Positions 3,901 through 24,248 of a DNA stretch of 64,000 nucleotides are shown here, piece by piece. The translations under genes and the position numbers were made by a program. Below the pieces are notes generated by a model that was not told where the DNA came from, ran no database searches, and saw only the letters and a list, made by a program, of their open reading frames with translations. This DNA is from Photorhabdus asymbiotica (lineage in GTDB: Bacteria; Pseudomonadota; Gammaproteobacteria; Enterobacterales; Enterobacteriaceae), in the NCBI RefSeq assembly GCF_003634575.1, contig NZ_RBLJ01000002.1, forward strand, positions 62,001 through 126,000. The letters run 5' to 3'. Each line of letters begins with the position of its first letter. Position 1 is the first letter of the stretch.

Positions 3901-4107
3901 CTCATAATTTTCACTTCCATTTTTAACGTTACTATCAACTCTGGACAACAAATCAATATAACCTTCATCATCCAATTTTTTCTTATTAATGCATTGAAAT
4001 TCTGCGTTTTTATATCTACCACTTGTCGTATTTCTGCCTTCCTGAATAACTTCCATAAAGTTTTCATGAACAAATATTTCATTCATTAATTTATTTTCTT
4101 TATACAT
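925..4107 (-). CDS. Unknown N-terminal half fused to a benzoate-CoA-ligase-like adenylation domain (1060 aa)
   Basis: The C-terminal half (about residues 545-1060) is an ANL-superfamily adenylation domain. It has the P-loop FTSGSTGSPKAL near residue 716, then FFAYGLNSLL and IDGIGTTEVLSTFIS, which are typical of the benzoate/hydroxybenzoate-CoA ligase branch. The C-terminal lysine motif PKTSSGKLIRYAL is present. The family activates a carboxylate as acyl-AMP and then loads it on CoA or a carrier; no carrier domain is present here, so the acceptor is unknown. Residues 1-540 match no family I recognise. They are soluble-looking, AT-rich in coding, and contain alternating hydrophobic strands around 370-440. 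The start at 4107 is preceded by AGGGG at good spacing. Transcription follows the direction of the toxin gene, from which it is separated by about 455 bp. Aryl or acyl starter-unit activation for the nearby cluster is possible but unproven. Confidence 0.8.
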   Translation of the reverse strand: MYKENKLMNEIFVHENFMEVIQEGRNTTSGRYKNAEFQCINKKKLDDEGYIDLLSRVDSNVKNGSENYEKVFQLLNEITQSYENLDCRMSGDGKSKISLFISYMRQDSDKFDNFIAELDKQNKLMSVICSYLFIFHKIVCLPADDNSKDIILNIPDCLTLSQVDVVKRSMEILFEIISLKRSDKLLAHVVYDRFAEDDFAYTRPEISSKKVLECNHKQTITCFVYPNVITDIKNWDVSLVVFSETELVAVWNYLCEILSPFFLWSYKIVKTYTQVDVIVLPTSYEKLMNGGKQYSEALLNFAGKYIDKAEAFVVPSVIEGIIGKDELEKKLKKTFSLGDYFLVIQIREILTQISRNIQSGANRIKITALGEVRVVSYVLPLIEQYDCFDLVVGQEAYCANVVIILQGEKLWDIREFDQVSILVDMQGNVLNKYHLICQRANLLIIKDVYFETHEEDCHRAFSWLPYSIIYESILLSMIIAKFFDVSNSLLLNNKIINDIETHLALKDNCNPILISQYGPVVPYEIENVLSLHGVLTRPSRDGLNNYFGAIQARNALKTLKGNRMNLCNFIFKPGRGIALFDPNTGEHLTYDQLNQNTKRYSQKLNTLGLNIGDVVALAAVDSFQSVIIMLACFWRGLVFCPINYSASVEHIEKMLRAANPFVLICDETAQNVDLRALFNGLIINFHEITLGLVGESNNITDEAVLLPEEHPAVILFTSGSTGSPKALIHEHKDFVLCNMNYTPVVVGLREGECVYTPSRIFFAYGLNSLLISLFSGASHVIAAPLAKGKSYAETLKRFSVNVFFTVPMILKMILQDEIKDNNLPNLRLCISSGEVLPETLYIEAKQKMGTDIIDGIGTTEVLSTFISNRDGYSRPGSSGLLVPGFVVKLVNSDGRICSVGEVGVLWVKGNTLAKGYINDAKGENSDSFVDGWFNTRDLYFVDAEGFYYYVGRSGATLKINGCWFSPQVLEQVLMKHPKVKESAVWFSKDEFELIRPYALIVLAEEVSDLPKLWSELKEYARSKLGKSHYPHFFRSVNALPKTSSGKLIRYALSDLAKKNG

Positions 4108-10500: not shown

Positions 10501-13499
10501 TATTCAAGCTCATACAAGTTAGGCGTGACCTTCACCAACTGGACATTACCCTCTGCCGGCAGGCGACCAGACTTAACCAGTGCCTCGGCACTAATGGTAT
10601 GGGTTTTGGCAAACTGTATAGGATCGGTGGCAAATTGATGGATGTCGATGCTGCCTTGACGGGGTTCAAATCTATCACCTACAGACGCCAATCCGGCCTT
10701 GAGTTCGAGATCCTTCACCGCCTGCCCCAACAGCGCCGGCATTGGACCAATGCGGGTAAAACGTGGTGGATGAAACTCATCAGCCTTCGGTAAACCCTGA
10801 TTGATGATCGGCAAAACTCGCTTCATTACTCCGTCATACAGTGCACCCTGCAACGCCATCTTGCTGCCTTCAGCGCGGTACTTGTCAAACATCTTTAACA
10901 TGTCCTCGCCGATACTACCCGTACCTTTCGGTTCGTAACGCGCAGCGACGTAGAAGGTTTCGAAGAACGAATGATAGCCGTTACGGATCATGAAGGCCGC
11001 ATTGACCATCTGGAGCTGCCAGTACTCTTTGATACTCAACGCGCCACTGAATAATTCCGGCAAGGCATTGCTGACGGTTTGGGTGGTCCCGGAAATCCCC
11101 CCCACAAACGGGGTATCCAAGTCATTCATGTAACGTGTGGCGTCATTATTGGGGTCCGGACGGAATTGGTTGTAGCTGCGGTATTTATCGTCCTTGATCG
11201 GGTACGAACCACCGTGATACACCTGCCCCTCAGAGCTGGTATTGAGGATCAAATACGGGTCAGGCTGATTCAACCGGTTATTGATCATAACCTTGCCGGC
11301 ACCCAGCTCGGCGTGGGGATTGACTGGGACCGCAGCTTTGGAAAGACCATCAGCTACCGGACGCAAAACATGGAACAAGACCTGTTTACGCAAGCTCCGG
11401 CCCTCATGACTCAACAGCGCCCCTTTAACCGTCAGACGCAGTTGCACATCGGTACTCTCAAGGCCCTTGGGACCAGCTAACAACAGGGTGAGCAACTTGC
11501 CGTCCAGCAAGCGCTCAACCGCAACCTGATCGAAAACCTGTATTTTCGGGTTGCTTGGATGCTGTGCAGCATTGGCGCTGGCAACCCGCAGGGTTTCCGC
11601 TTCGACAGCCTGAATGCGCCACTGTTCGTACAACGGAGCCAACAGCTTCTTGGCTTGGGCAATGTCACTTTGTACATAGCCACTTTGCAGGACCTTGACT
11701 ACAGCCGGGTTCTTCACCAGACTCGCCGCTAACCCGAACAGCAGCGGGTCATGATCAACGCTCTGCCAGACCGCAGCGGCGAACGCCTGTTCCCATAGCA
11801 CTTTGTTCAGGTTATTGCCCTTGATATCGCGCATTCTGTCATAGGTGTATTCCGTCTCCAACACTCCTGCGGGGGTGATGTGGTTGCGTTCAAGCAAACG
11901 CACCAGTTGCTGCTCGAACTCCGTGCGTTCGCTGCTACCTTCGAACAAACGACTAGCCTCCGCACCATCGTCTCGCAATTGATCCAGCTTCTCAAAAAAT
12001 GTAGCGTTGTATTGATACAATTCAGTGGTCTGCGCCTTACTCAAGTGACTACTGCTAATCTTGTCGCCGTCAACGCTCATCACCACGAAGGGCGTTGCCG
12101 ACAAGTAGGTTTTGCTCGGGGTTTTGCCCTGTGGCATTTCTAGCAAGTACTGACGACCGGCAAAACCGACCGAGCGTTCCAGCTCATGGATATTGACGAA
12201 AAGCCCGTCACGGTCCGGGTGGTAACTGTTCTGGCGAAACCCCTCCAGGCCGATAGTCTGGAAGCTGGAGATATCAGCGTTCTGGTTAATCAGGTCACTC
12301 AAGGCGCCTGGCAATGGCACCTCACGAGAGATAGTGGTATTCAGCGCCTGACCAACCACCTGAATCCCAATCTGGTTCGGCACCTTGCGGTCAACGTTGG
12401 TCAACAGCATCTTGTGACCGTCACTCAGCAACTGTGCCTTAAAACCTTCGCGCAAGGTACTTTCCGAAACCAAGTAGTTGGCAAAGTACTTCTCGACGAA
12501 TGCAGTTTTGACCAGCACCGAGCGAATTGGCGCATAGGTCGGTGAACGGAAAGATGGAGGCTCATTTTTGAGCCGGTATTGTTGTTGCCAGGCTAGGGAG
12601 CGGGCTGCGGTACCGAAGGAGAAGTTGAGTACCCCATTCGTCGGTACGACCAACCTACCTTTCTCCAGGAAGAAGTCCTTGAAGCGGCCATCAGTGCTGG
12701 CATTGACCAACGCGACGTTCATGCGGATGTAGCCAGGACGTTCCTCCATCATCAAGAGTGAAATATTTACCGGCAGATCATCAGAGGCTTGAGGCACCTT
12801 GGTCAGCGCGTCGAGGGCCGCCGCTTCTTCCTTAGGAGATGATGCATTGAGAAAGGCGTTGTAGCGGGCATTGACATCCTTGTAAGCTTGCAGTTCGGAA
12901 AACAGCGTCACATATTTTGGGCTAAATGTAGAGTCGGCTACCTGTACGGTCAGTTGCTGTTCCAAACGCTTAATCTCGGCATCCAGCTTAGCCCGCTTGT
13001 TCACCTTATCCTCCTTCAGAATCATCTCCTTCGAGGTCACCTCCTTCAGGGTCGCCGTCTCCACATTCAGGGGCGCCTCATTCAGGGTCTTTAAGCCGCC
13101 TGGACTCAGCATGCCCAGGGCCTTGCCCCAAGTGCTGTCAAAGTGCGTTATGGCTGTTTGCTGGCGGCGATATAACAAGATGTCACGGTCCAATTGCTGC
13201 TTGTAGGCGTTGACCGCCGGCGTACCGGGCACATTGTCCATCTGCTTGCGTCTTTGCTGTAGCGTCTGCAACTGGTCGCCGACAGAAATAGGGTTGTCCT
13301 GCATCTGAAAATGCTGAGCAGCCAGCACACTCAGGGTACTCTGCTGTATTTCTTGCAGCCGTTCGTTTACCTGCCTGATGTAGTCGGCACGCTCGTCAGG
13401 GCTCATGTTGAACCATTCGGTCTGACGACCCGCCGCTTTGATCTGTCGCTCGATCAGAGTATTAAGCAGGTTCGTAAAGTCTCCAGATATAAAAGCCAT
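4563..13499 (-). CDS. Giant Mcf/FitD-family insecticidal toxin (2978 aa)
   Basis: Length is close to Mcf1 (about 2930) and FitD (about 3000). A protease-like domain of the C58/YopT and MARTX-MCF kind has a plausible triad: Cys1417 in GDRSGGRCYPLV, His1506 in QNHSMMVGI and Asp1525 in YFYDPNVG. A TcdA/TcdB-pore-type region follows, with a long Gly/Ala-rich hydrophobic stretch near residues 1820-1910. The C-terminus has an RTX-like GGADSDTY motif near 2858, in line with unaided secretion. There is no signal peptide. By family knowledge the pore region inserts into host endosomes and delivers the N-terminal part, with host cell death and loss of body turgor. An Arg/Glu/Gln-rich insert lies near 2335-2370. 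The start was set at ATG 13499, which has AAAGGA upstream; an in-frame start 15 codons earlier lacks such a site. The gene is much GC-richer than its flanks (60% in bases 5101-5160 against 35% in 3001-3060), suggesting transfer. Whether it is nearer Mcf or FitD cannot be settled here. Confidence 0.85.
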   Translation of the reverse strand: MAFISGDFTNLLNTLIERQIKAAGRQTEWFNMSPDERADYIRQVNERLQEIQQSTLSVLAAQHFQMQDNPISVGDQLQTLQQRRKQMDNVPGTPAVNAYKQQLDRDILLYRRQQTAITHFDSTWGKALGMLSPGGLKTLNEAPLNVETATLKEVTSKEMILKEDKVNKRAKLDAEIKRLEQQLTVQVADSTFSPKYVTLFSELQAYKDVNARYNAFLNASSPKEEAAALDALTKVPQASDDLPVNISLLMMEERPGYIRMNVALVNASTDGRFKDFFLEKGRLVVPTNGVLNFSFGTAARSLAWQQQYRLKNEPPSFRSPTYAPIRSVLVKTAFVEKYFANYLVSESTLREGFKAQLLSDGHKMLLTNVDRKVPNQIGIQVVGQALNTTISREVPLPGALSDLINQNADISSFQTIGLEGFRQNSYHPDRDGLFVNIHELERSVGFAGRQYLLEMPQGKTPSKTYLSATPFVVMSVDGDKISSSHLSKAQTTELYQYNATFFEKLDQLRDDGAEASRLFEGSSERTEFEQQLVRLLERNHITPAGVLETEYTYDRMRDIKGNNLNKVLWEQAFAAAVWQSVDHDPLLFGLAASLVKNPAVVKVLQSGYVQSDIAQAKKLLAPLYEQWRIQAVEAETLRVASANAAQHPSNPKIQVFDQVAVERLLDGKLLTLLLAGPKGLESTDVQLRLTVKGALLSHEGRSLRKQVLFHVLRPVADGLSKAAVPVNPHAELGAGKVMINNRLNQPDPYLILNTSSEGQVYHGGSYPIKDDKYRSYNQFRPDPNNDATRYMNDLDTPFVGGISGTTQTVSNALPELFSGALSIKEYWQLQMVNAAFMIRNGYHSFFETFYVAARYEPKGTGSIGEDMLKMFDKYRAEGSKMALQGALYDGVMKRVLPIINQGLPKADEFHPPRFTRIGPMPALLGQAVKDLELKAGLASVGDRFEPRQGSIDIHQFATDPIQFAKTHTISAEALVKSGRLPAEGNVQLVKVTPNLYELEYIERSTNDILTNRVVAYFLGYNGPDQANAVPAYVDIPKQGEPGNFLFTGTLSGGSLVVTSLDDNTYRVYHDGRVNSSLLYDNVVMAVDYKDYQVSGTTEGLATAYMQYVDGEWQLAFQRQEYQQDGQRVWPKLRDGGEPLSILVADSQVGQHNQGEFATYREQIHQQLKKVATQFGVSVEGVADGVYTEGEFSPEHPAIAAWTRLREAVQAKVKADIDQVAGKHQQLQEARRTSSDTALIDQQIKQLNLTQDYYRAQYDSVLREADFVEKAWLWQQIKAKDGSAAVVRIDDTAIQGGKRTSSVGERYAIAEAYQRGVLGTAFAYGLQNFREINIPGVDDKTSVLDMKSLFLEGKLTTEQRGALSGRITETSQAEYIDKVLRQTAVFSEDFHDAGSVFNRLVPQDFYLLLVGDRSGGRCYPLVRAMAVALASSGETGINNLVQKLFFASADPQAGGSTLLKNSLIRLHSNVEAVQASTKLGLSNLSEVVSRLTTTAHTAMFALNTQNHSMMVGITVTAEGRRYYFYDPNVGIFAFDNTKNLFNAMNKHLVERNLAVHYGSFGSQSEPAFNLVEIDTGKMAEVPVGNGLNVADLTRFEELASVIGQRRQVEQAVRAPERVTEDLRLSTLLKTLDAEQLGGRFEVASTQLAQEYQLDSHWLPIIATTEELGEGHYRVQFINSDQPEQTLWLTTDDSTFVEFRRFVDEHMRVLNEHFTLENGRMQLRRGVSEVAPVDGLNAGFTVQTLIQWFADKNRHDAASGVASPDLATALKIHSYLGLTQMAHGSLQDVVKITELVRTALRGEVKAAETSFKDFALSLGHTVNEGAGVLFGGVMVGLDAYELAHAENDVQKAVFGTQLAFDSASLVTGVAGVGAGLVGASTTAAVLGGAGVILGGLAVGFTALAQAFGAVAEDAKAVGRYFDTVDYAYGHNGYDHKVENEKKVLVSLPGAVVKCLDLQKNQIVFDSQYIYRTHSGSTGSGEINYFFWIGDFPQMVHDRDQAIEVRSGIGYKEASKSLEYGDSAIILPGTPKSYIRYEYMLLPGATTRHDTGFDVIRRLEEDKRFDYDFYIFPGEQTIRRIHHEYVDTSIEVVLDQRDRQLVVPKLPKELHGYLHYEIKGNGGKYQIGLNEGTRVKLTNVAASEWIIDLSQLASNGISVSKNQLVFGGVVVELDPVKNKSVSVVNKGEMHVVDFSNSQPIVNLVSVDADGWQGPDQQIEQHLKKLNKAHQLHGHYVVVENYRHNGRDVGRAFYDVVKDRMLFTDTSQKQARHAQLGAVIDDYAYFYDADNVAVWRVDIATGQVDAQFELWFNQCDGKISRLWQEGDAVYLARHYWLKVKEQPEKRLEEQLKDWPEEQAEELLKQRPEKRGAELGYKILGDRMELVSAVGDDELLQLSAGTNRHNDELQVIRKGYESDGIPRKTPTYTLGARLIQPTSAELITVFGLDAANVPHRYWIRTSDRTLIKPNLAPPADQAWNLKEGKQTRSAWKIPSDLVLAGSMPQPGGKEVFFFYSKKEKALFRQEGPGQAVLDASQPSALRVTTPALSNVINVNGHLIAITEDGYVARLDAQGQLNYAAVNEHWLKKHIHWWQDLAGVAGFRATLAVFGVKGTNDNLLPVWYHNGQVVVASAPLQDKHLQFLGFEADGSSARLFELANGKLYRQPPMTADALAAAFGSEAVLKASAQLPAVSELMPELHLKAAEQVDAGLRLTTVKGEILLRTNDGKLQLVAVDKDWQQVNLARLPQALAEVAGQWPTKGVLTLQGDESRGWFDVDSGQLFSVGGILAAADNLRFVGVDAGKKGAYVYSPTDQALYRIQGGGVHYTSVERIGSSLLLQGGEMSGRQDELTPPLIAGVDSVVLHGGADSDTYRLSEAMWSHYRTIVIDNDDLSQALDHLIIPVADAEKILVSRHEDDLILTDSANGTDLVMRKVFGNQAVTHRHLKIKLKGSSSVISIDHLVECFTRMGVAKDGLFELSWAIQ

Positions 13500-14326
13500 T
13501 ACAGTGATCCTTTGTCTGTTTTTGAGGGAAGCCCTTCGCACCACGAAAGGCTGTCTGTCGATACGGATTTGTTATCCAATACATTTACCGTGGAATTCCC
13601 GCACATACGGCCGGGTCGAAGGTAAATATCATTTGGTACTCCTTTATTTGAGCGATAGTCGCAGGCCATGGTTCTTTAGGTTGGTGAATATTGGATAGCT
13701 AATAGTTCTTTGCTCTATAATTGTAGTCATCATTGTTTCCTTTATTTTTCGTTTATATTGCAGATCACATAAGTGATAACCATTGAATATAATCAACTGT
13801 GTATATATTTAAATATCAATTATTAATTATTTGAACTATTTATTAATATGATTATTTATATGTGGTCATAATTTTCAGTCATATTTTTACGTTTTTTATA
13901 AGACATTGAATAAATAAAATGACGAATTTTAGGAAGGTTATTTATTGACGAATGGTTATATCTGATTTTTTTAGGCTTGATATTTCAACTTATTGGGTTT
14001 TAATAGTGCAAGTGAGGGATTAATATCGTTTTGACTCTATGGATAAGTTTATTTCTGTTTTTAATAACGTGACTGTTCTCCGCCTTATCCTGTCTCTTGA
14101 TCACATCTACAGGTCAAAAGATTGGCAGTGAATATTAGTGACCTGCTCCCGCCGCTAAGTCACCAGTAACTCTGGCGGGGCTTCTTATGACCTTTAGCAA
14201 AAACTAATAGCTTTTCGTTGCCATCCCTACACTGATAGGAGTTACTACAAGGGAACTGTTTACATAAACCGCTAGATCCTAGCATATCAGCTAATCCTTG
14301 ATGGCAAACCAGGCAAGCACCTTTTA
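13500..14326. other. Long AT-rich region upstream of the toxin gene
   Basis: About 830 bp without a gene. Bases 13500-13680 keep the composition of the toxin gene. Bases 13720-14050 are very AT-rich and probably hold the toxin promoter and binding sites for silencing proteins such as H-NS (inference). The rest lies downstream of the HFCD gene at 14327. Confidence 0.5.
14145..14181. repeat. GC-rich hairpin between toxin and biosynthetic cluster
   Basis: Arms GCTCCCGCC (14145-14153) and GGCGGGGC (14174-14181) can pair apart from one bulge and enclose a 20-base loop. It may end transcription of the biosynthetic operon, which runs toward it, or be a REP-like element. Confidence 0.35.
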
Positions 14327-14896
14327 TCAATGTTGCCCTGATTTTACCTCTATCAACCTGGACCTCAACAACTCCACGACTTCGCTAGCTGGTGGCAAGG
14401 AAGGATGACCAACTATCCGCTGTAGCGCAGTATCATAGTTTTCATGCCATACAGGTTGAATAACCTCATAATTATCCTCACAAATTTGACGAACATTTCT
14501 ACACACAGCAGATTTCTTCCACATTACCGCCCCCATAGCGGGAAAAAATAAGACTGGGAAATCAGCAGCAAGAATAACCGTCGTTAGACGATTAGGGGCC
14601 GCCCCCTGTGCTACTGAAGCCAGGGTATTAGCCGTTGCTGGTATAACAGCCATAATATCGTGATCGGCAACAATTTTTGAGGGCTTATCTGTTGGCCAAT
14701 CAGCTGGATTTTCATCAGCGATGACGCGATCAGCCCACAATCTCAGAGTTTCAGCAGGGATAAATTGAGTTGCCTGTTTGGTCATCAATACCGTTAATGA
14801 GCAGTTAATATTCGCCTTAATTGCCTTCAAATATTCCGGAAGATAAGTAATATCTACCGAGCCACAGGCACCTATTAAAATTCTTTTTTTCACCAT
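14327..14896 (-). CDS. HFCD-family flavoprotein cysteine decarboxylase, dithiolopyrrolone type
   Basis: A 189-residue homo-oligomeric flavin-containing Cys decarboxylase (EpiD/CoaC-like). Seen: N-terminal flavin-binding strand RILIGACGSVD, the PATANT motif (PASANT in the family) and PAMGAVMW in place of PAMNxxMW, so the usual Asn of that motif is Gly. Family members oxidatively decarboxylate a cysteine carboxylate. In the holomycin and thiomarinol pathways the corresponding enzyme (HlmF/HolG) acts on a cysteine-derived intermediate of the pyrrothine core. It is the last gene of the run 20774-14327. A housekeeping CoaBC is unlikely, because the CoaB half is missing and the context is biosynthetic. 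The start was placed at ATG 14896; an upstream TTG at 14911 is possible. Confidence 0.8.
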   Translation of the reverse strand: MVKKRILIGACGSVDITYLPEYLKAIKANINCSLTVLMTKQATQFIPAETLRLWADRVIADENPADWPTDKPSKIVADHDIMAVIPATANTLASVAQGAAPNRLTTVILAADFPVLFFPAMGAVMWKKSAVCRNVRQICEDNYEVIQPVWHENYDTALQRIVGHPSLPPASEVVELLRSRLIEVKSGQH

Positions 14897-14983
14897 TATA
14901 ATATTCCACAAGGCAAAGATATTTAGCAGCAGTCATTGTGAAAGTAAAAGCCTTCACTTTCACTGAAGTATTAACAGCAATAA

Positions 14984-15448
14984 TTAAAGTGTTCCGGGAG
15001 GCGCTTCTCCCCATCCCCATTTTTTAATCGTTTCACGTTTGGAGCATGGGGCTTTAGGTTGTGAGTTGGCCTGCGCACGACGAGACCCCCACTCAATGTA
15101 AGCTGCAAAAGCAGAGCGAAATTCTGGATCAGAAGGAAGATTAACCTCATCAGCACATTCCATCATTAAATCCACCCAACGCTTACGCTGTTCAGGCTGA
15201 GTATTTCTACCTCGGTGTTTAGAAATCATGCCCTTAAAACCGCCCCTATGAGCCGTATAATTCGGCTCTCCACCTAAAACCTCCTCCAACCAAATTGCCA
15301 CATGTTCTGGATGATCGGATGACATACGGGAAAACATAGGTGCTAATAATTCATCTTTTTCAACTTTAGCGTAAAAGGTCGTCATTAATTTCATCAACAC
15401 TTCTCTTCCCCCCATCCATTCAAATAATGTTGGTGTACTGTCAGACAT
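14984..15448 (-). CDS. Group II truncated hemoglobin in the biosynthetic cluster
   Basis: A 154-residue globin of the 2-on-2 truncated type. Seen: LFEWMGGREVL at the A/B region, FYAKVEKDELLAPMF, HPEHVAIWLEEVLGG, HRGRNTQPEQRKRWVDLM (His proximal-region motif) and a C-terminal extension rich in Lys and Pro. Dithiolopyrrolone clusters carry such a globin (HlmG/HolH) of unsettled role, perhaps in redox chemistry or oxygen handling. It starts at ATG after GGAGAAATT. It lies 88 bp upstream of the HFCD gene and 51 bp downstream of the acyltransferase gene, on the same strand, so an operon is likely. A generic oxygen or nitric-oxide globin is the alternative. Confidence 0.85.
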   Translation of the reverse strand: MSDSTPTLFEWMGGREVLMKLMTTFYAKVEKDELLAPMFSRMSSDHPEHVAIWLEEVLGGEPNYTAHRGGFKGMISKHRGRNTQPEQRKRWVDLMMECADEVNLPSDPEFRSAFAAYIEWGSRRAQANSQPKAPCSKRETIKKWGWGEAPPGTL

Positions 15449-15498
15449 AATTTCTCCATTAAGCTTAATCAGCTACAGTTCAAATGAATTAATGTTAT

Positions 15499-16368
15499 TT
15501 AGCCCAATTCCAGAGAAGCCAATGCATTAATCTCTGGATGATACTGAACAGGCGGATTCCCACGATACATCCTGCACGTGTAAAAAAGCGGTTTAAATCC
15601 TAAAGAGTTGACAAGAGCTATTACATCATGAGCATATTCAGGAATATCCAACGTTACCTTAGTATTCTCAGATATTTCATTCAGCGCCATTGACATCAGA
15701 ACTTTCATGTCCTGTTTATTTCCAGCATAAAAAGGTCCGATACGATATCCCTCATCAGAAGGCCGCAAACCAATTAAACCTTCGATGCCGTTTTTTCCGG
15801 TAATAATAAAACCTTTTCTACCGTCGCCAAAAAACCAAGTCGAGAGTAAACTCAGGCGTGAATAGCCCATAAAACGAGAGTCATACTCCACCACCGCCAA
15901 AATATTTTCTTGATTCACCGTTTCAACATTCTGGAAATTGACCATTTGTTTACTGGCTGTTCCCAAAACTCTCAACGTCTGATAATGCGTTACAAAACCC
16001 CATTTTTGATAATTTTTCTCTTGGGCAGGCATGCCATCCAACCCAATACAACGCCCTTCAGCATGTTCAATCGCCACACGCCATGTATTAAGCCCTAGCC
16101 CTTTGCCGCGAAAAGCAGGATTAACGATATAATGGCCAAGATGCGAGTAATTTTGAGCGTAATTCACCACAGACACCGATGACACGGGTTGCCCATGCAA
16201 ATAGCCAATATAAAAGCCGTTTGCATCAACATTAAAAAATCTCCGAGCATCCTCCCGCCCCAAATCCCAGCACTCCCGGCGGGCCATATCGATGGCAGGT
16301 AACCATATTTCAGGCGTAGCAATCTTCACCTGAAAATTATCTTCAGACAATTCACTTATCATATTCAT
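15499..16368 (-). CDS. GNAT-family N-acyltransferase, candidate pyrrothine acyltransferase
   Basis: 289 residues. The N-terminal GNAT domain has the acetyl-CoA loop NPAFRGKGLG near residues 85-95 and a KWGF motif. The C-terminal region resembles the second domain seen in two-domain GNAT proteins (Acetyltransf_18 type). Holomycin-type clusters encode an acyltransferase (HlmA/HolE) that acylates the amino group of pyrrothine. I assign that role here by context only. The gene follows the chimeric oxidoreductase by 31 bp and precedes the globin. It is intact, unlike several neighbours. Confidence 0.65.
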   Translation of the reverse strand: MNMISELSEDNFQVKIATPEIWLPAIDMARRECWDLGREDARRFFNVDANGFYIGYLHGQPVSSVSVVNYAQNYSHLGHYIVNPAFRGKGLGLNTWRVAIEHAEGRCIGLDGMPAQEKNYQKWGFVTHYQTLRVLGTASKQMVNFQNVETVNQENILAVVEYDSRFMGYSRLSLLSTWFFGDGRKGFIITGKNGIEGLIGLRPSDEGYRIGPFYAGNKQDMKVLMSMALNEISENTKVTLDIPEYAHDVIALVNSLGFKPLFYTCRMYRGNPPVQYHPEINALASLELG

Positions 16369-16399
16369 ATTTTCCCGCGGTCAGATTAAAACGTAATAC

Positions 16400-17404
16400 T
16401 CACAAGCCCATCGATTTACTAATAAACTCTTTAAGAATTTCGCTAGTACCGCCATAAATAGTTTGTACACGACTATTTGCCCAAGATTTTCCAATAAAGG
16501 AATCACTCATATATCCCGCACCGGAACGTTGCAATATAGCGGCTGATCCCACAGCCCCAGCACAGAGCACGACCTGTTCAGCATGATAAGTGGTATGTTC
16601 CCCATTTTTAGTCACTTCAACGCCCGTCGCCCTGCTGGCGGAAAACAGCACTCTTTCAACCATCACATTGGTGAGAATATGCAAGTTTTTCCGCTCCCGA
16701 GCCGTGGAAAGGTAGGCTCGATAAAGATCAAACCGTTCCGCACCCTGCACCACATTGGCAGGAACAGTTCCAACGGCAGGCCCTTCCCCTTCATTCAGGT
16801 CATCCACAAAAGGAATACCGTGATCTTGGCACGCCACAGAAAAAGCCTTTTCTAAAGGCAGAATTTCAGCGTCACCCGGCCTGCGCAATCTCAGCGAACC
16901 CTTGTGACCATGCAATGAAGAATTCTGTCGATCACAATCATTTTCAAGAAATTTGTACCACGGCAAGACATCCTGCCATGACCATTTCTCACAGCCCATT
17001 TTCACCCAATATTCGAAGTCACTGGGAAAAGCTCTTAATGCGACGGCACCATTAATGGCTGAAGATCCCCCCATCACTTTCCCTAAGCTGTAACCAAATT
17101 GTTTACGTCTATCTCTCCCTACGGGAGAGATATCATCAGCCTGAACAAATCGTGAGAATCTGTCTGCACCATGAACATTCGCTTCGTACTGCCAATTATA
17201 TCCTTCCAGAACCAACCGAGAAGCATCCAACAATGGGCTGTCGGGCCTGTCCACATCAGAATCCTGTCCGGCTTCAATCAGCATGACCGAGTATTTACCA
17301 TTCTCTGAAAGACGCGATGCCATGACGCAACCGGATGTTCCTCCCCCTACGACGATAAAATCAAACTGAATAGACGTATGGGCCGCGGTAGAGTGATTAC
17401 TCAT
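16400..17404 (-). pseudogene. In-frame chimera: GMC oxidoreductase N-terminus joined to the tail of an acyl-CoA dehydrogenase
   Basis: Residues 1 to about 296 are a GMC flavin oxidoreductase: FAD-binding FIVVGGGTSGCVMASRL at the N-terminus, GKVMGGSSAINGAV, and VVLCAGAVGSAAILQRSG. GMC enzymes are normally about 500-550 residues and carry their catalytic His-His/Asn at the C-terminus, which is absent. The last 38 or so residues (GYMSDSFIGKSW, then NSRVQTIYGGTSEI and a LKEFISKSMGL end) are the classic acyl-CoA dehydrogenase C-terminus. The junction lies near 16510-16525, at RSGAGYM, where the GMC SG-x-G and the dehydrogenase GGAGYM motifs share sequence. A deletion between the two genes explains this, and would have removed anything in between. 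Both activities should be lost. In intact dithiolopyrrolone clusters these are HlmD/HolF and HlmB/HolC. The start has AGGAG upstream. Confidence 0.85.
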
Positions 17405-17415
17405 ACATACTGCTC

Positions 17416-20052
17416 CTAACCATTATCCGACACAGTTGCAAGAATCTTTGAAAAATCACGAACAGAAGCATTCATAAATAAGCTTTCAATCATATCCTGC
17501 TCGCTTGTAGGGCTGACATTAAAGGATTCACGCACTGCACTGAGAATGCCCACTGCATGTAATGAATCTCCACCAATATCAAAAAAGCCGTCATTGACAT
17601 CAAAATCGTTATGTTTCAATTGCTTCGACCAGAGATCGAATAAACGGGACTCAATATCATTGGACGGCAAGCTTTTACTTTTTTCAGCTACCGCTTCACC
17701 CCAAGGCGTTGGCAAAGCTTTACGATCAATTTTTCCGTTGGTGGTCAGTGGCATGCTATCCAGTAATACAAACCAGGTAGGTACCATGTAAGAAGGAAGA
17801 TTGTCTTGAGCAATCCCCCGCAATTCATTCTCTAATAACCTGTTATCGCTATCGTTACTTCCTTTTTCTGCAACGATATACGCAGCCAACTGCTTTTGAC
17901 CGGTTTTCGGATGGATTGCAGCATTGATTACCACATGGTTAGCCTGTTGATGTGATAGCAAACAGGCTTCAATTTCTCCCAGTTCAATACGATATCCGTT
18001 AATTTTTATCTGGCTATCTTCCCTCCCAAGAATTTCAATTAATCCCTGATCAATATAGCGTCCTAAATCACCCGTTTTATACAATCGTTCGCCAGTGACA
18101 GGATGGATAATAAAACGCTCGCGGGTTTTTTCCTCGTCGCAGAGGTAGCCTTGTGCAACACCCTCTCCGGCAATAAAAAGCTCACCAGTTACCCACTTAG
18201 GGCAAGGTTCAAACCAGTTATTGAGTACGTGGAATCGCTGATTAGCGAGCGGTTTGCCATAGGGAATACTTTTCCAGTTCGCATCAACCTCTCGGATGGG
18301 ATAAACAATTGACCAAATCGAACCTTCAGTCGCCCCACCAAGACTCACCACCTCAATACCGTCTATTGCTGCTTTAATCTGGTCCGGCAGATTAACGGGT
18401 ATCCAGTCGCCACTCATCAAAACCAAACGCAAAGCGCTGGTGGAGAGTTGAGGCCCAGCATGTTCAATCAGCGCCTTAACCGGTGCAGGCACACTGTTCC
18501 AGAGGGTTATTTGGTGTTTAATTATTTGTCTGGCCCAGGCTTTAGGATCGTTAGCTTCATCTTCTGAAGGAAACAATATCTTGCCACCTGCACCCAATAC
18601 GCCAAAATAGTCATAAACAGAAAGATCAAAACCGGCTGGTGCAATGGAAAATACCCCGTCATCTTCGCTGACGCCAAAACGACGATTAATATCCAAAACG
18701 GTATTAGCCGCATTACGGTGGGTAATCATCACTCCTTTCGGTTCACCTGTGGAACCAGAGGTAAAGATCACATAGGCTAGATCATCCAACGTTTGAAACG
18801 CGACCCGTTCAGGGAACCTAACAGGGGCACTGCTATCAATATCCACATTGATTCTCACCAACAAATCTGGCTCATCAGCACAAGCATGAGTAACTATCGC
18901 CTTGGCTGAACAACGTTCTATCAATCGCGACCTACGCTGTCTCGGCAACATCGGATCGATGGAAACGTAAGCAGCCCCGGCAATTAATACCCCTAGAATA
19001 GCAGCAATCATTTCCGGCCCCTGCGGAAGTGAGACTGCGATGATGTCACCGGACTTAATCGACACCGACGCTCTCAGTCGGTCAGCCACATTATTGGCGC
19101 TAGTTACTAGTTCACCATAGCTAACCTGACGCTCCCCCTGAATAATTGCCGTTTTGTGGGGGAATTGACGGGCACTATTCAGGATAAGATTTTGCAATAA
19201 CTCTGGTTGAGTATCATTAGCAGTAGCGTTCGCCACCTGCCTTTCCCATAAATCATGTGGTGACAGAACAACCACCGAGCCTTTTTGGTCCCAAATTTCC
19301 GGGTTATCAGCACATTGCTCCAAAAGCGTTACAGAAGCATCAAACATCATTTCCAGCATGCCTTGTGGGAACAAGCCATCAACATAATTCCAGTTCATTA
19401 CTAAGTTGCCGTTGACATTCAATAGCTGATTCTCAAGCCAGATCCCTGGCGTCTGTGTACTACTGTAAGTTACCGGTGCAGTACCCTCCCAGGTATAATC
19501 GGTGATAATATCGCGCAGTTCTATGTCAAGCGTATTACTAAACACAACCGGCATGGAAAGTGCGCGTCCATTGCTACCACGACGATTTAGTTCTCTCAGC
19601 ACCTGGATACCGTTAAACGAAGAGTGCCATCGATTCATAAACAGCTCTGTTTGCAATATAGTCAGCCGATTTATAAAAGAATCCGATTTGTTGTCGTCAA
19701 CGCAGAGCAAACTTGACTGAAGAAAATTCCCAACACACGATTGAACAAGGGGAAAATGCGGACGTCGGGTATGTTGAGTTAATGTCAAAGTAAAAGTCTG
19801 ATGACGTGACCACTGCCGTAACGTTTCTACATAGGCCCCTAGAAAAAGCGTTTCCATGGTAATACCTTGAGCGGTACCAATCTGACGGAGTTTATTCAAC
19901 AATTCAAAAGTGATTTTATGAGAAATCGTTTTGAATATCGGTTTCTTAATTAACTCCGGTGACTGCTGAAACGGTAATTCAGGCGCGGAAGGCATATTAT
20001 CTAATTTTCTAATCCAATAGTCTTTATCTCTAATACCCTGTTCATTATGCAT
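17416..20052 (-). CDS. Cysteine-activating NRPS, C-terminal part: end of Cy domain, adenylation domain, carrier domain
   Basis: 878 residues. Residues 1 to about 265 are the second half of a heterocyclization (Cy) domain. Residues 285-780 are an adenylation domain with FTSGSTGEPKGV, YKTGDLGRY and the C-terminal NGKIDRKAL lysine motif. The end is a peptidyl carrier domain with the phosphopantetheine serine in GGDSLHAVG. Reading the pocket positions from FDLSVYDYFG, LWNSVPA, LVLMSG and SLGGATEGSIW gives D-L-Y-N-L-S-L-I, the cysteine code. A free-standing Cy-A-PCP cysteine enzyme is the core synthetase of dithiolopyrrolones (HlmE/HolA type). There is no thioesterase domain. The first half of the Cy domain lies in the preceding frame (20001-20774), and the two overlap by 52 bp with a -1 shift. 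ATG 20052 has only a weak ribosome site, so independent initiation is doubtful. It ends 11 bp before the GMC chimera. Confidence 0.85.
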   Translation of the reverse strand: MHNEQGIRDKDYWIRKLDNMPSAPELPFQQSPELIKKPIFKTISHKITFELLNKLRQIGTAQGITMETLFLGAYVETLRQWSRHQTFTLTLTQHTRRPHFPLVQSCVGNFLQSSLLCVDDNKSDSFINRLTILQTELFMNRWHSSFNGIQVLRELNRRGSNGRALSMPVVFSNTLDIELRDIITDYTWEGTAPVTYSSTQTPGIWLENQLLNVNGNLVMNWNYVDGLFPQGMLEMMFDASVTLLEQCADNPEIWDQKGSVVVLSPHDLWERQVANATANDTQPELLQNLILNSARQFPHKTAIIQGERQVSYGELVTSANNVADRLRASVSIKSGDIIAVSLPQGPEMIAAILGVLIAGAAYVSIDPMLPRQRRSRLIERCSAKAIVTHACADEPDLLVRINVDIDSSAPVRFPERVAFQTLDDLAYVIFTSGSTGEPKGVMITHRNAANTVLDINRRFGVSEDDGVFSIAPAGFDLSVYDYFGVLGAGGKILFPSEDEANDPKAWARQIIKHQITLWNSVPAPVKALIEHAGPQLSTSALRLVLMSGDWIPVNLPDQIKAAIDGIEVVSLGGATEGSIWSIVYPIREVDANWKSIPYGKPLANQRFHVLNNWFEPCPKWVTGELFIAGEGVAQGYLCDEEKTRERFIIHPVTGERLYKTGDLGRYIDQGLIEILGREDSQIKINGYRIELGEIEACLLSHQQANHVVINAAIHPKTGQKQLAAYIVAEKGSNDSDNRLLENELRGIAQDNLPSYMVPTWFVLLDSMPLTTNGKIDRKALPTPWGEAVAEKSKSLPSNDIESRLFDLWSKQLKHNDFDVNDGFFDIGGDSLHAVGILSAVRESFNVSPTSEQDMIESLFMNASVRDFSKILATVSDNG

Positions 20053-20774
20053 GAGTTTTTTTCCGCATAGATATAATCAACAAAACCAAACTCCGGTAAT
20101 TTATTTAATGCTTTGGCATTCTTATAAAACCCCCACCAATCCTTCATCAATATTTTTACGCTATGCAAATCAAGAAACATCAATTCAAAACACAGATGCA
20201 AACGAACCACATTATTATTGAGCAATGTAGCTCTAATATCGAATGGAGGCGACGTTTCTAAAGAATTCAGATGAGTTTCCATTTCATTTCGCGTCTGTTT
20301 AATAAAATCCTGCTGTACCTTCTCATCCATTGAAGCACAGTCAGTTATGGCAATCTCATAACGCTTGGGAGTAAACGACGCCCTCTGCCTGCCACAGTCA
20401 GTCAGCTCAGCGCTAAGCATAGGATGAACAGCAATTGTCTGATTTAACGCTTCATTGAGCTTTTGCAGATCAAGGTTAAATATTTCAGTTTCAAAATAGT
20501 AGCGGGTTGCAATCCCCCCCAAAGTCATACCTGCATTACGACCAATCAGATAAGCATATTGGATGTCAGTAAGTGAAAATGGCTCAGATACTTCTCTTTT
20601 ATCTTCTATATTAAAAAGCAACAAATCATCAACAGGTAATTTTACATTGAGAAGATCATTTATTTTTATAGCATATTTACTAGTCGCATTTTCAGTATGC
20701 TTAGCAATATAACTCTCTTCTATAACTAAATTATTTAAACCAATTTTATCCGCAGATTCCTGCACTATATACAT
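20001..20774 (-). CDS. NRPS, N-terminal part: first half of the Cy domain, frame-shifted from the rest
   Basis: 258 residues. After about 65 residues of linker comes the Cy start motif FSLTDIQYAYLIGR. The family DxxxxDxxS motif appears as ELMFLDLHS, so the first Asp is Glu. The protein ends with an unrelated tail after AEKNSCIMN, at TAG 20001-20003. The natural continuation (HNEQGIRDKDYWIRKLD) is in the -1 frame and begins the next open frame. ATG 20774 was chosen for the AGGGG site upstream; 22 extra codons before it look non-coding. Together with 17416-20052 it would form one Cy-A-PCP protein of about 1120 residues. Confidence 0.8.
   Translation of the reverse strand: MYIVQESADKIGLNNLVIEESYIAKHTENATSKYAIKINDLLNVKLPVDDLLLFNIEDKREVSEPFSLTDIQYAYLIGRNAGMTLGGIATRYYFETEIFNLDLQKLNEALNQTIAVHPMLSAELTDCGRQRASFTPKRYEIAITDCASMDEKVQQDFIKQTRNEMETHLNSLETSPPFDIRATLLNNNVVRLHLCFELMFLDLHSVKILMKDWWGFYKNAKALNKLPEFGFVDYIYAEKNSCIMNRVLEIKTIGLEN
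20055..20061 (-). other. Perfect -1 slippery heptamer at the NRPS frame break
   Basis: On the minus strand the codons AAA AAC are preceded by A in the zero frame (GAA AAA AAC). This is exactly the A AAA AAC heptamer that allows -1 slippage, inside a run of seven A. A -1 shift here restores the Cy domain. The same result would follow from one lost A in an eight-A run, by mutation, phase variation or sequencing error. Confidence 0.6.
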
Positions 20775-21033
20775 AATGTACCCCTGTGAAATTATTAAGA
20801 AATCACTAAAAACAAAATAACGTGAAAAATAGCCACCCATTGGGCAGAACGAAAAACCCGAACTGCAATTTTTAATAGAAGCTTTATATTAAAGATATTT
20901 CTAGTTAAATAAAACCATCACCAAGTTCACTCCATGGTTAATTAATATAGAAAATCAGCAATGTCATGAAATAATAATAATCCACCCATTTAAGGAATGA
21001 ACATTAGGATTTTCATCAAAATTAATTAAATAA

Positions 21034-21160
21034 TATACCCAATAAATTTCGAGTTGCAGCACGGCGGCAAGTGAACGAATCCCCAGGAGCATAGATAACG
21101 ATGTGACTGGGGTGAGTGAAAGCAGCCAACAAAGCAGCAACTTGAAGGATGAAGGGTATA
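21034..21160. repeat. ERIC element, 127 bp
   Basis: The element starts at TATACCC and ends at GGGTATA, giving terminal inverted symmetry and exactly the 127-bp ERIC length. The central ERIC core is visible as ATCCCCAGGAGC and GTGACTGGGGTGAG around a short spacer. It sits in the divergent intergenic region 20775-21393 between the NRPS and the exporter. Apart from this repeat I see only AT-rich promoter-like sequence there. Short open frames inside it are artefacts of the repeat. Confidence 0.9.
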
Positions 21161-21393
21161 CACCATATATTCCTATCGCTAATGAAGATATAACCAGCAA
21201 AATGATTCACAATAACTATTTGAATTTTATTACCAATATGATTCCTAATATATAGCTTGATCTACGTAGCATTTATTGTAATTAAAATCAGCAAAAAATA
21301 ATGTTAATCATTCCACTTAGTTATTCATCTTGACAAAGTAAAAACAACGGGAATATCACTAAAATATTCAATTGAATGATTAAGGTGAAAAAA

Positions 21394-22833
21394 ATGAGTG
21401 AAGGTATCGTGATAAAGAGCAAAAAATTGACCGAACTTGAAAAAATCAGCGTTCAATCGACAATCAACGACCAAATATCAACCAACAGCTCCCGAGTATT
21501 TACTATCCTTGCTGTAATACAAGCAACATTGATTTTTACGATCGTAATGATCGGAGTACCCATGCCCGCCATTGGTCTTGAGTTCAAGTTATTTCAAGCT
21601 GAATTGGTGTTGGTTAGCGCCGCCTATGGTCTTCCCTTCAGTGGCCTATTGTTGTTTGGAGGACGACTGACTGACCGTCATGGTGGCAGGAAAATGTTCA
21701 CCCTCGGTCTGCTAATATTTGGTCTTTCGTCTCTGGCCGGTATGTTTGCCCCAACTTACTGGGCATTAGTTACTATTCGTTTTATCCAAGGTATTGGCGC
21801 TGCTCTCACTGCTCCGGCGTTGATGGCGCTATTACGCCAGCTTTACCACGATCCCAACCAGTTCAACCAAGCAATGGCAACCTGGGGAGGGGTATCTGTG
21901 CTGGGCGGCGCCATCGGATTCCTCTCTTCCGGTGTGATTACCACATGGCTATCTTGGCGCTGGATGTTTATCGTTCCAGTTTTAGTTGCTTTCATCGGCC
22001 TAATACTAGTTCGCAAAATGATGAAGCCTACATCGCTCAGCAGTACCGATTCACCTGATCTGGATTTATTGGGCGCGTTACTGGCAACCAGCGGTATTTC
22101 AATATTCAGCTTCGGCCTTATTATGAGTGGAGAATATTCTTGGCTAACACCACAGGTATCAGTACCAATAATCGTCGGTGTTCTATTGATTATTTCCTTC
22201 TTGATTGCTGAAAAACGGGTAACTTCTCCTCTGTTACCCTTAAGTTTTATCCGCGATCCTATGCGTATTACCGGCCTGGTGGGTATTCTGATGGCTGCGG
22301 CAGGAATGGGATTGATTACATTTTTACTTTCTCTGTATCTACAACAATTCCGCGGCTGGTCATCATTCGCCACTTCTATGGCTTTTATACCCTATACACT
22401 TGGTCTTCTGATTATAAATCGAGCCGCAGGACCTCTGGTAATGCGCTACGGTGCATTTCATATCACAATAACCGGATTATTGATTGGTGCAGTCGGGCTA
22501 TTTCTACTGGCAATGATCGATGACAAAACCACCTATACTGTGGGCCTGCTTCCAGGGCTGTTTATACTACCAACTGGCGCATCTTTAGTGTTTTCAGGCA
22601 GCGCCGTGCTTTCTACAGCTAATGTTCCCCTGAGCCAAGCCGGGCTTGCAGGTGGTGTGATGAATACCTCAATGGAGCTAGGACCAACAGTCGGGCTGGC
22701 AACATTAATGGCCGTTGCAGCTACCAGAGTGGATGTTATCAATGGATATGCTTGGGCATTTGGCACCGCCGGTGGGGCTTATTTACTAGCCGCTCTTGGC
22801 GCATTGTTTTACCTAAGAAAAATAAAACACTAA
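21394..22833 (+). CDS. MFS drug exporter of the DHA2 (EmrB/QacA) type
   Basis: 479 residues with about 14 hydrophobic helices. The motif between helices 2 and 3 is GGRLTDRHGGRK, and helix 5 carries the antiporter motif C-like segment GGVSVLGGAIGFLSSGV. It most likely expels a toxic product by proton antiport at the inner membrane. Dithiolopyrrolone clusters include an MFS exporter (HlmH type), so self-protection against that product is the likely role. It is divergent from the damaged NRPS operon and itself looks intact. ATG 21394 was chosen because AAGGTG lies 6 bases before it; an ATG six codons upstream lacks a site. Confidence 0.85.
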   Translation: MSEGIVIKSKKLTELEKISVQSTINDQISTNSSRVFTILAVIQATLIFTIVMIGVPMPAIGLEFKLFQAELVLVSAAYGLPFSGLLLFGGRLTDRHGGRKMFTLGLLIFGLSSLAGMFAPTYWALVTIRFIQGIGAALTAPALMALLRQLYHDPNQFNQAMATWGGVSVLGGAIGFLSSGVITTWLSWRWMFIVPVLVAFIGLILVRKMMKPTSLSSTDSPDLDLLGALLATSGISIFSFGLIMSGEYSWLTPQVSVPIIVGVLLIISFLIAEKRVTSPLLPLSFIRDPMRITGLVGILMAAAGMGLITFLLSLYLQQFRGWSSFATSMAFIPYTLGLLIINRAAGPLVMRYGAFHITITGLLIGAVGLFLLAMIDDKTTYTVGLLPGLFILPTGASLVFSGSAVLSTANVPLSQAGLAGGVMNTSMELGPTVGLATLMAVAATRVDVINGYAWAFGTAGGAYLLAALGALFYLRKIKH

Positions 22834-22908: not shown

Positions 22909-23580
22909 CTATCTGTCATTCTGTACCTCGAACCCAGCCGCTTTCCAAGCTGGAAATCCCTCTTCCAAACGCCGCGCAAGAAACCCCTTTGATCGCAGTA
23001 TCTTCATCGCATTAAGGGAAAGTACACAATATGGTCCGCGACAATAAGCCACAATTTCTTGCTCCTTAGGCAACTCTGACAAACGCCCCTCAAGTTCTTC
23101 AGCGGGAATATTGATAGCCCCAGGAAGATGCCCGGAAGCGAACTCTTCCGAAGGGCGAACATCCAGCAAGGTAACCTCCCCCAGATTAAGTCTTTGAAAC
23201 AATTCTTCACGTGAAATCGACTCCAGATGCTCTCGTCGGTTAAATGTATCGGCGATAAATGCTGCTATCTCACTATTTCTATATTCAACATACTGATGGA
23301 GTGCCGCCAATAGATTTTGTACCGGACCGTTACCCAAACGATAGTAAACGTTCTTACCTTCCCGACGTGACTGCACAAAACCTGCTCGCTTAAGATGCTG
23401 AAGATGTTGTGACGAATTAGCTATTGTCAATCCAGTTAGCTCAGCCAGACGTTCTACCGGCCTTTCTCCCTGAGTAATATGTTCCAGTAGCATCAGACGG
23501 TGGGTATTTCCCAAAATTCGAGCTACCTCCGCCAACTCGTCAAAGAGTTGTCGTTGGGCATCATCATTGAATATTGACAT
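22909..23580 (-). CDS. ArsR-family regulator fused to a rhodanese domain
   Basis: About 223 residues. The N-terminal winged helix (about 10-100) has the ArsR recognition region LTGLTIANSSQHLQHLKRAGFV. The C-terminal rhodanese domain (about 120-220) has DVRPSEEFASGHLPGAINIP and the catalytic cysteine in CRGPYCVLS. Such fusions sense sulfur or persulfide or metal stress and repress neighbouring genes. It is divergent from the broken DUF2938 gene, which is its likely target. The start is uncertain: ATG 23580 or an in-frame TTG at 23598; neither has a strong ribosome site. Confidence 0.85.
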   Translation of the reverse strand: MSIFNDDAQRQLFDELAEVARILGNTHRLMLLEHITQGERPVERLAELTGLTIANSSQHLQHLKRAGFVQSRREGKNVYYRLGNGPVQNLLAALHQYVEYRNSEIAAFIADTFNRREHLESISREELFQRLNLGEVTLLDVRPSEEFASGHLPGAINIPAEELEGRLSELPKEQEIVAYCRGPYCVLSLNAMKILRSKGFLARRLEEGFPAWKAAGFEVQNDR

Positions 23581-23739
23581 ACTGTTTTCATTGCTCAATC
23601 ATTCAATATAATAGTTGAACATGATCATATCAAAGGTTGCTCATACTACCCAGCGTGTGGTCATTTTTTTCTGCTATTTTTCAACCTAGTTTATTACAAA
23701 GCATGTTCTATATTTCTTTCAATTACCTGGAAGTGTCAA

Positions 23740-24248
23740 ATGGATATACTACTGCACGCAGTGATAATAGGAATCGGTGCTACCTTGATTATGGATCTTT
23801 GGGCAATAGTACAAAAACGCCTATTCAATATTCCCTCCCTTAATTATCAACTGGTTGGACGCTGGCTCGGACACACATGCCGGGCGGCAAATTTGTTCAC
23901 CATACCATTATTCAAGCAACCCCAATTAGAGGTGAAAAAGTCCTTGGCTGGACAACGCACTATATTATTGGCGTATTTTTCTCCCTGCTATTTATTATCA
24001 TAATAGGTCAATCCTGGCTGGAAAATCCTACCCTTTTACCTGCCCTAGCCATGGGGATCATTAGCATAATCGCCCCATTTTTTCTGATGCAGCCTGGTTT
24101 TGGATTTGGGTTTGCTGCGGCTAAAACGCCGCAGCCTAATGTAGCCCGTCTGCGCAGTTTGGTCGCACACACTAGTTTTGGGGTAGGAATTTACCTTAGT
24201 GCGTTGATTATTAATGAATTATTCCCAATAAGCAAACTTATCAATTAA
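23740..24248 (+). pseudogene. DUF2938 membrane protein gene broken by a two-base insertion
   Basis: Two overlapping frames make one DUF2938-like protein of about 168 residues. The first frame gives MDILLHAVIIGIGATLIMDL through RWLGH, then runs into an unrelated tail ending near 24003. The second frame resumes with MPGGKFVHH and continues through several membrane helices to 24248. The break lies at 23871-23877, in an ACACAC run; removing one AC repeat restores a single frame. The function of the family is unknown. The start has GGAAG upstream. The gene is divergent from the ArsR-rhodanese regulator. Confidence 0.75.

What the first reader, a model, noticed from the sequence alone, without database searches (positions are those of the whole stretch)
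14327..22833. Decaying dithiolopyrrolone (holomycin/xenorhabdin-type) gene cluster
One run of genes holds the unusual combination of Cy-A-PCP cysteine NRPS, GMC oxidoreductase, acyl-CoA dehydrogenase tail, GNAT, truncated globin, HFCD decarboxylase and an MFS exporter. This is the parts list I know for holomycin (hlm) and thiomarinol/holothin (hol) clusters. Two core parts are damaged and the thioesterase and disulfide-forming oxidase are not in the window. The cluster therefore seems to be an antibiotic pathway caught in the act of being lost, with acyltransferase, globin, decarboxylase and exporter still open.
Basis: partly seen in the sequence, partly recalled or inferred. Interest (0 to 1): 0.8.

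Follow-up and report, generated by a model that had tools for sequence, protein, structure and literature searches.

The report
Recently broken holomycin-type antibiotic cluster
An insect- and human-infecting Photorhabdus carries the remains of a gene cluster for a known sulfur antibiotic, apparently disabled so recently that the surviving genes still look like those of a sister species whose copy is whole.

Summary
Window 14327-22833 carries NRPS, a GMC/acyl-CoA dehydrogenase fusion, GNAT, truncated globin, HFCD decarboxylase and a divergent MFS exporter. The genome is a Photorhabdus, probably P. asymbiotica: 15 kb of one small contig is 99.9% identical to a P. asymbiotica plasmid. P. australis DSM 17609 has the whole set intact next to gsk, 92-95% identical in DNA, and its seven core proteins match the thiomarinol hol genes of pTML1, in the same order, at 44-69%.

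Against P. australis, a net 2,525-bp deletion removed the GMC C-terminus, the thioesterase and most of the dehydrogenase. No replacement GMC or dehydrogenase was found in the assembly. None of 29 flanking genes is broken. Surviving genes show dN/dS 0.01-0.20 and no faster protein change than the sister's, so the loss looks recent.

Correction: the 'missing' disulfide oxidase is absent from the known Gram-negative clusters too. Addition: 9 of 9 cluster-bearing genomes among 392 sampled also carry an ArsR-rhodanese and a DUF2938 gene, beside the cluster in 8.

The parts
14327..14911 (-). HFCD/PPC-decarboxylase-like flavoprotein (HlmF/Hom1/HolG type), open; an ATG start at 14896 is also possible
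   Evidence: PF02441; 67% to HolG of pTML1; dN/dS 0.127 vs P. australis
14984..15448 (-). truncated globin (HlmG/Hom2/HolF type), open
   Evidence: PF01152; 68% to HolF; dN/dS 0.013
15499..16368 (-). GNAT N-acyltransferase (HlmA/Hom3/HolE type), open
   Evidence: PF18014/PF00583; 45% to HolE
16400..17404 (-). in-frame fusion left by a deletion: residues 1-297 of the GMC oxidoreductase joined to the last ~45 residues of the acyl-CoA dehydrogenase; junction at about 16522-16524
   Evidence: Pfam; blastn breakpoints L029 12975/15502; junction alignment; matches HolB 11-294 and HolD 334-378
17416..20061 (-). 3' part of the Cy-A-PCP NRPS (end of Cy, A, PCP); A-domain pattern DLYNLSLIW
   Evidence: 53% to HolA
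20058..20774 (-). 5' part of the NRPS (start of Cy) in another frame; frame break inside a short run of A at about 20058-20061
   Evidence: tblastn of the P. australis NRPS: aa 1-239 in frame -3, aa 239-1119 in frame -2
21033..21160 (.). ERIC-like repeat (about 127 bp, many genomic copies; the name ERIC is recalled) in the NRPS-MFS intergenic region
   Evidence: 61 other places in the own genome match this stretch, some only in part; a copy lies at a different site in P. australis
21376..22833 (+). MFS exporter (Hom8/HlmH type), divergent from the NRPS, open
   Evidence: PF07690; 97% to P. australis; dN/dS 0.065
22909..23598 (-). ArsR-family regulator fused to a rhodanese domain, open; conserved neighbour of the cluster
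   Evidence: on the same contig, 7.5-11 kb from the globin, in 8 of 9 cluster-bearing genomes
23740..24248 (+). DUF2938 gene, frame broken by a dinucleotide expansion at about 23874-23877; whole in P. australis

Best explanation
This is a dithiolopyrrolone (holomycin-type) biosynthetic cluster of the Gram-negative hom/hol architecture that has recently stopped working. In the intact form (P. australis) an iterative Cy-A-PCP NRPS would load and couple two cysteines. The acyl-CoA dehydrogenase, GMC oxidoreductase, thioesterase, HFCD decarboxylase and globin would turn the Cys-Cys unit into holothin. The GNAT would N-acylate it and the MFS protein export it. Here a deletion of about 2.5 kb between short imperfect repeats removed three of those steps, and the NRPS frame is also broken. 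The strain should therefore make no pyrrothine. Shown: gene content, order, lesions, and that no GMC or full dehydrogenase replacement is in the assembly. Inferred: chemistry from homology, and loss of product, helped by the published loss of holomycin when the GMC homologue hom6 is disrupted in Y. ruckeri.
For: Intact syntenic cluster in P. australis DSM 17609. Gene-by-gene match to pTML1 hol genes. Deletion breakpoints and in-frame junction. NRPS split over two frames. Own-genome searches find only the locus's own GMC piece, only the dehydrogenase remnant plus a 28% partial hit, and thioesterases at 22-23% identity. 0 of 29 matched flanking genes split. dN/dS 0.013-0.204 over the surviving cluster-unit genes and pieces. 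13 window-branch against 14 australis-branch amino-acid changes when polarised by two agreeing outgroup loci, 99 unresolved. hom6 disruption abolishes holomycin (PMC3826145 section 16).
Against: No reads were available, so assembly error at the NRPS homopolymer cannot be excluded; the 2.5-kb deletion is harder to explain that way. No second strain of the same species was available. Whether P. australis makes a pyrrothine was not tested, and I saw no report of it in the papers read in part. Low dN/dS over the whole branch cannot exclude that some surviving genes are still selected.
Confidence: 0.92

Rival explanations
1. The damage is an artefact: the living strain has an intact cluster and the assembly dropped a stretch and a base.
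For: The NRPS break lies in a homopolymer run, a common site of sequencing error.
Against: 0 of 29 matched flanking genes are split. The deleted GMC and dehydrogenase pieces were found nowhere else in the assembly. The DUF2938 break is a dinucleotide expansion, a less usual error. The deletion junction is a clean join with short imperfect repeats.
Confidence: 0.06
2. The pathway is dead but the tail (GNAT, globin, HFCD, MFS, ArsR-rhodanese) is kept because export or acylation protects against dithiolopyrrolones made by related competitors such as P. australis.
For: All these genes are open with dN/dS 0.013-0.127. The fusion ORF stays in frame, so the downstream genes may still be translated (inference).
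Against: The whole-branch dN/dS is explained as well by recent loss. Branch changes are about equal in both species (13 vs 14, 99 unresolved). The DUF2938 companion is itself broken.
Confidence: 0.1
3. The GMC/acyl-CoA dehydrogenase fusion is a new working enzyme in a remodelled pathway.
For: The join is in frame and keeps the GMC FAD-binding N-terminus.
Against: It has no match to GMC_oxred_C, which the intact protein has, nor to the acyl-CoA dehydrogenase N and middle domains. The NRPS upstream is broken too.
Confidence: 0.02

Closest known systems
hom cluster of Yersinia ruckeri (holomycin), hom1-hom8
   Same: Same parts list, and by the gene numbering the same order (decarboxylase, globin, acyltransferase, dehydrogenase, thioesterase, GMC, NRPS, MFS); reported to lack HlmI and a free-standing C domain (PMC3826145, passages).
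   Different: Here GMC, thioesterase and dehydrogenase are mostly deleted and the NRPS frame is broken. The RNA-methyltransferase self-resistance named in the title of Qin et al. 2013 (seen only as a reference; paper not held) was not looked for. No Y. ruckeri sequence was compared by name.
hol cluster of thiomarinol plasmid pTML1 (holA-holG), Pseudoalteromonas sp. SANK 73390
   Same: Seven genes in the same order; P. australis vs hol 44-69% identity; a DUF2938 gene (54.5%) lies on the same side of the NRPS.
   Different: No MFS or ArsR-rhodanese match in the 24 kb fetched around hol; the hol product is joined to marinolic acid (PMC3069032).
Cluster of Photorhabdus asymbiotica ATCC 43949 drawn in Fig. 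4 of Fukuda et al. 2011
   Same: Same species if the plasmid evidence holds, and very likely the same locus (PMC3069032, caption and passages seen).
   Different: The figure itself was not visible to me; the passages seen do not mention deletion or decay.
Clusters of four genomes of one unnamed genus, g13 (guessed to be Xenorhabdus)
   Same: NRPS, GMC, TE, ACAD, GNAT, globin and HFCD present in order, the NRPS only partly fetched in one.
   Different: In the three loci where the far side of the NRPS was fetched there is no MFS match; in the one locus examined an extra ORF, metallophosphoesterase-like by eye, lies between globin and HFCD. GNAT only 37-40% identical to P. australis.

Membership tests
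Dithiolopyrrolone biosynthetic cluster (hlm/hom/hol) | Single Cy-A-PCP NRPS module activating cysteine | tested here: inconclusive
   Domains and the DLYNLSLIW pattern present and shared with HolA, but the ORF is split over two frames. That the pattern means cysteine is recalled.
Dithiolopyrrolone biosynthetic cluster (hlm/hom/hol) | Acyl-CoA dehydrogenase (HlmB/Hom4/HolD) | tested here: not met
   Only the last ~45 residues remain; whole in P. australis
Dithiolopyrrolone biosynthetic cluster (hlm/hom/hol) | Thioesterase (HlmC/Hom5/HolC) | tested here: not met
   Absent from the locus; only 22-23% relatives elsewhere in the genome
Dithiolopyrrolone biosynthetic cluster (hlm/hom/hol) | GMC oxidoreductase (HlmD/Hom6/HolB) | tested here: not met
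   Truncated at residue 297 of 543; no second copy found
Dithiolopyrrolone biosynthetic cluster (hlm/hom/hol) | GNAT, globin and HFCD decarboxylase together in hol/hom order | tested here: met
   45%, 68% and 67% to HolE, HolF, HolG, same order
Dithiolopyrrolone biosynthetic cluster (hlm/hom/hol) | HlmI-type dithiol oxidase | tested here: inconclusive
   No such ORF seen by eye in the ORF lists of the window region or the P. australis locus; it is absent from the two known Gram-negative clusters (PMC3826145), so it does not discriminate. The whole genome was not searched for it.
Dithiolopyrrolone biosynthetic cluster (hlm/hom/hol) | A pyrrothine compound is made | not testable with these tools
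   Needs mass spectrometry; predicted absent here
Intact sister locus in P. australis DSM 17609 as a dithiolopyrrolone cluster | All seven core genes plus MFS, open and in order | tested here: met

The most novel reading that the evidence does not exclude
The ArsR-rhodanese fusion regulator and the DUF2938 protein form an unrecognised dithiolopyrrolone-linked module in Gram-negative producers. The regulator would sense reactive sulfur or dithiol species and control MFS and biosynthesis, and DUF2938 would act in self-protection or export. P. asymbiotica is then a natural case in which the producer lost both pathway and DUF2938 while keeping regulator and exporter.
Probability: 0.3. Interest if true: 0.5.

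Novelty: new member of a known kind. Interest (0 to 1): 0.33.

Why it matters
Two sister Photorhabdus species, both known from clinical isolates (abstract of PMC2717986 in the listing; reference title), differ in one antibiotic pathway: one copy whole, one freshly broken. That makes the ecological value of dithiolopyrrolones in this symbiosis testable by comparing close relatives. The repeated company of the ArsR-rhodanese and DUF2938 genes gives candidates for regulation or self-protection in Gram-negative producers; for the thiomarinol plasmid, Fukuda et al. reported finding no gene for resistance to the pyrrothine part (PMC3069032).

Tried and rejected
Chance assembly of unrelated genes: rejected, because the same core order occurs in P. 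australis, in eight further cluster loci of the family (the NRPS only partly fetched in one) and in pTML1.

Loss of a disulfide oxidase: rejected as a lesion, because the two known Gram-negative clusters lack it (PMC3826145).

A replacement GMC, dehydrogenase or thioesterase elsewhere in the genome: searched. No other GMC; besides the locus remnant, one 28% partial dehydrogenase hit; thioesterases at 22-23% identity.

Old, drifting pseudogenes: not supported by dN/dS or by the outgroup comparison.

ArsR-rhodanese or DUF2938 as markers found only with the cluster: rejected, since 8 and 33 of the other 383 genomes carry them.

An order-wide sample with the dehydrogenase at the strict limit E <= 1e-130 gave 1 of 384 genomes, one already known. 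The GNAT has no solved-structure relative by sequence at E <= 0.001; the NRPS search of solved structures gave 35 NRPS-type sequences and no dithiolopyrrolone enzyme by name. Four literature searches bearing on a Photorhabdus dithiolopyrrolone cluster or its loss listed 25, 30, 25 and 15 of 361, 66, 153 and 194 papers; no listed title or shown abstract start reports the loss in P. asymbiotica. I opened only some of them, in passages. PMC3312335 and PMC9456166 (passages) had nothing on Photorhabdus clusters; of PMC10134970 I saw only abstract and outline.
Full report
What the window is. The window is G000:C2:62001-126000 of a 5.10-Mb Photorhabdus genome in 8 contigs. In a scan of named genomes, which finds close relatives only and may leave out the window's own genome, the single locus found for the GNAT was P. 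australis DSM 17609 (94%). The first 15,000 bases of contig C7 (27.4 kb) are 99.9% identical to the P. asymbiotica plasmid NC_012961.1, 29,330 bp. I therefore take the strain to be P. asymbiotica, on plasmid evidence only.

Observation. On the minus strand the order is NRPS (two ORFs), GMC/ACAD fusion, GNAT, globin, HFCD; the MFS gene is divergent.

The intact sister. P. australis locus L029 has the same block beside gsk with every gene whole: NRPS 1119 aa, GMC 543, thioesterase 248, acyl-CoA dehydrogenase 376, GNAT 289, globin 154, HFCD 196-215 by start codon, MFS 476, ArsR-rhodanese 223, DUF2938 162. DNA identity is 92-95% over the aligned pieces.

Lesions. (1) L029 12976-15501 is absent from the window, a net loss of 2,525 bp. 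The join puts GMC residues 1-297 in frame with the last ~45 residues of the dehydrogenase. The two breakpoints carry imperfect 12-nt repeats, 8 of 12 identical in P. australis as read by eye, which suits a short-homology deletion. (2) The P. australis NRPS aligns in two frames, residues 1-239 and 239-1119, with the break in a short A run. (3) DUF2938 is split by a dinucleotide expansion. As a control, 29 neighbouring P. australis ORFs of at least 150 aa that match the window at over 70% all align in a single frame: 9 of 14 from L067, 15 of 15 from L068 and 5 from L029. One of the 29 is cut by the window edge and two by the ends of the fetched loci; the 5 unmatched L067 ORFs were dropped. Five of 10 cluster-unit genes are damaged against 0 of 29 (Fisher p = 4.4e-4); those five come from three events.

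No rescue elsewhere. Whole-genome searches found no other GMC relative; besides the locus remnant one 28% partial dehydrogenase hit; and thioesterases at 22-23% identity.

Age. dN/dS against P. australis is HFCD 0.127, globin 0.013, GNAT 0.122, GMC part 0.088, NRPS 3' part 0.088, NRPS 5' part 0.204, MFS 0.065, ArsR-rhodanese 0.093; gsk is 0.032. With two outgroup loci agreeing, 13 amino-acid changes fall on the window branch and 14 on the australis branch; 99 are unresolved. Most of this divergence is therefore probably pre-loss. This cannot tell recent loss from continued selection on single genes.

Family identity. Against pTML1 hol genes the P. australis proteins are 48.9% (NRPS/HolA), 59.4% (GMC/HolB), 45.7% (TE/HolC), 63.7% (ACAD/HolD), 44.0% (GNAT/HolE), 68.6% (globin/HolF) and 65.6% (HFCD/HolG), in the same order. 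In 'plasmids', pTML1 ranks first of 303 records for the NRPS. The A-domain pattern DLYNLSLIW is identical in the window, P. australis, L063, L064, L066 and HolA; that it is the cysteine code, and the positions read, are recalled. Hom1-Hom8 in Y. ruckeri and HolA-G in pTML1 are the published counterparts. HlmI is absent from both, and hom6 (GMC) disruption abolishes holomycin (PMC3826145, passages and section 16).

Distribution. In the genus sample, 2 of 12 genomes (the window's own and P. australis) have the NRPS at 96% or more; the best match in the other ten is 33-39% identical, to other synthetases. gsk is in 12 of 12, but the ArsR/DUF2938 side matches in DNA in only those 2. In 4 of the other 10, fetched and examined, no cluster gene lies by gsk beyond low-identity NRPS/TE hits in one. 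In a family sample the cluster globin is in 9 of 392 genomes, 6 genera, the window's own included; P. australis was not in that sample. Cluster loci of the eight others were fetched. In seven, GMC, TE, ACAD, GNAT, globin, HFCD and NRPS are open over the stretch seen, with the NRPS only partly fetched in one (L098). In one (G200, L065) the NRPS changes frame in a homopolymer. The window's is the only one of the nine that lacks TE and most of ACAD.

Companions. All 9 globin-positive genomes carry an ArsR-rhodanese relative and a DUF2938 gene; among the other 383, 8 carry the former and 33 the latter (Fisher p = 4e-14 and 8e-10, ignoring relatedness: four of the nine are one genus). In 8 of 9 both lie on the globin's contig, the ArsR-rhodanese gene 7.5-11 kb from it; in G323 they are on another contig. 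pTML1 also has DUF2938 (54.5%) but no ArsR-rhodanese in the 24 kb seen. DUF2938 appears in 1 paper of the library, by search listing an Acinetobacter paper. A search combining rhodanese with dithiolopyrrolone terms (15 of 65 listed) led to a different rhodanese gene, rhlA of S. clavuligerus, whose disruption greatly lowers holomycin (PMC3826145). No function of either companion in this pathway was tested.

Already in print. Fukuda et al. 2011 (PMC3069032, passages) drew the P. asymbiotica ATCC 43949 cluster beside hol; I could not see whether the drawing shows the gap. The ATCC 43949 genome paper counts 2 pseudogenes in all (PMC2717986, passages). P. viridis is reported with an antiSMASH 'holomycin' hit (PMC11499390, passage), so the cluster may be wider in the genus than my 12-genome sample shows. 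Xenorhabdin clusters are known in Xenorhabdus (PMC9946207, passages). The kind of cluster and its presence in the species are therefore known; the decay and the companion genes are what this work adds, as far as the searches show.

Verdict. A real, correctly read and recently disabled member of a known antibiotic family.

Noticed in passing
window 22909-24248: An ArsR-rhodanese fusion and DUF2938 gene pair is present in 9 of 9 cluster-bearing genomes of 392 sampled, beside the cluster in 8; DUF2938 is also on pTML1.
   Followed up: partly
window 21033-21160; L029 8424-8550: ERIC-like elements sit at two different sites of the same NRPS-MFS intergenic region in the two sister species, which suggests independent insertions.
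   Followed up: partly
window 4563-13544: A 2993-aa ORF with a TcdA/TcdB pore-forming domain (PF12920) sits between the cluster and an AMP-binding gene (925-4107); at that place P. australis goes from the cluster to the AMP-binding gene homologue without it.
   Followed up: no
   Followed up: no
window about 20180 (NRPS 5' part): The first acidic residue of the Cy-domain motif (motif recalled) is Glu in the window, P. australis and L064 but Asp in L063, L066 and HolA.
   Followed up: no
L066 5631-6476: An ORF that looks like a metallophosphoesterase (by eye, not scanned) lies between globin and HFCD in a genus-g13 cluster; the two Photorhabdus copies have no such gene there.
   Followed up: no
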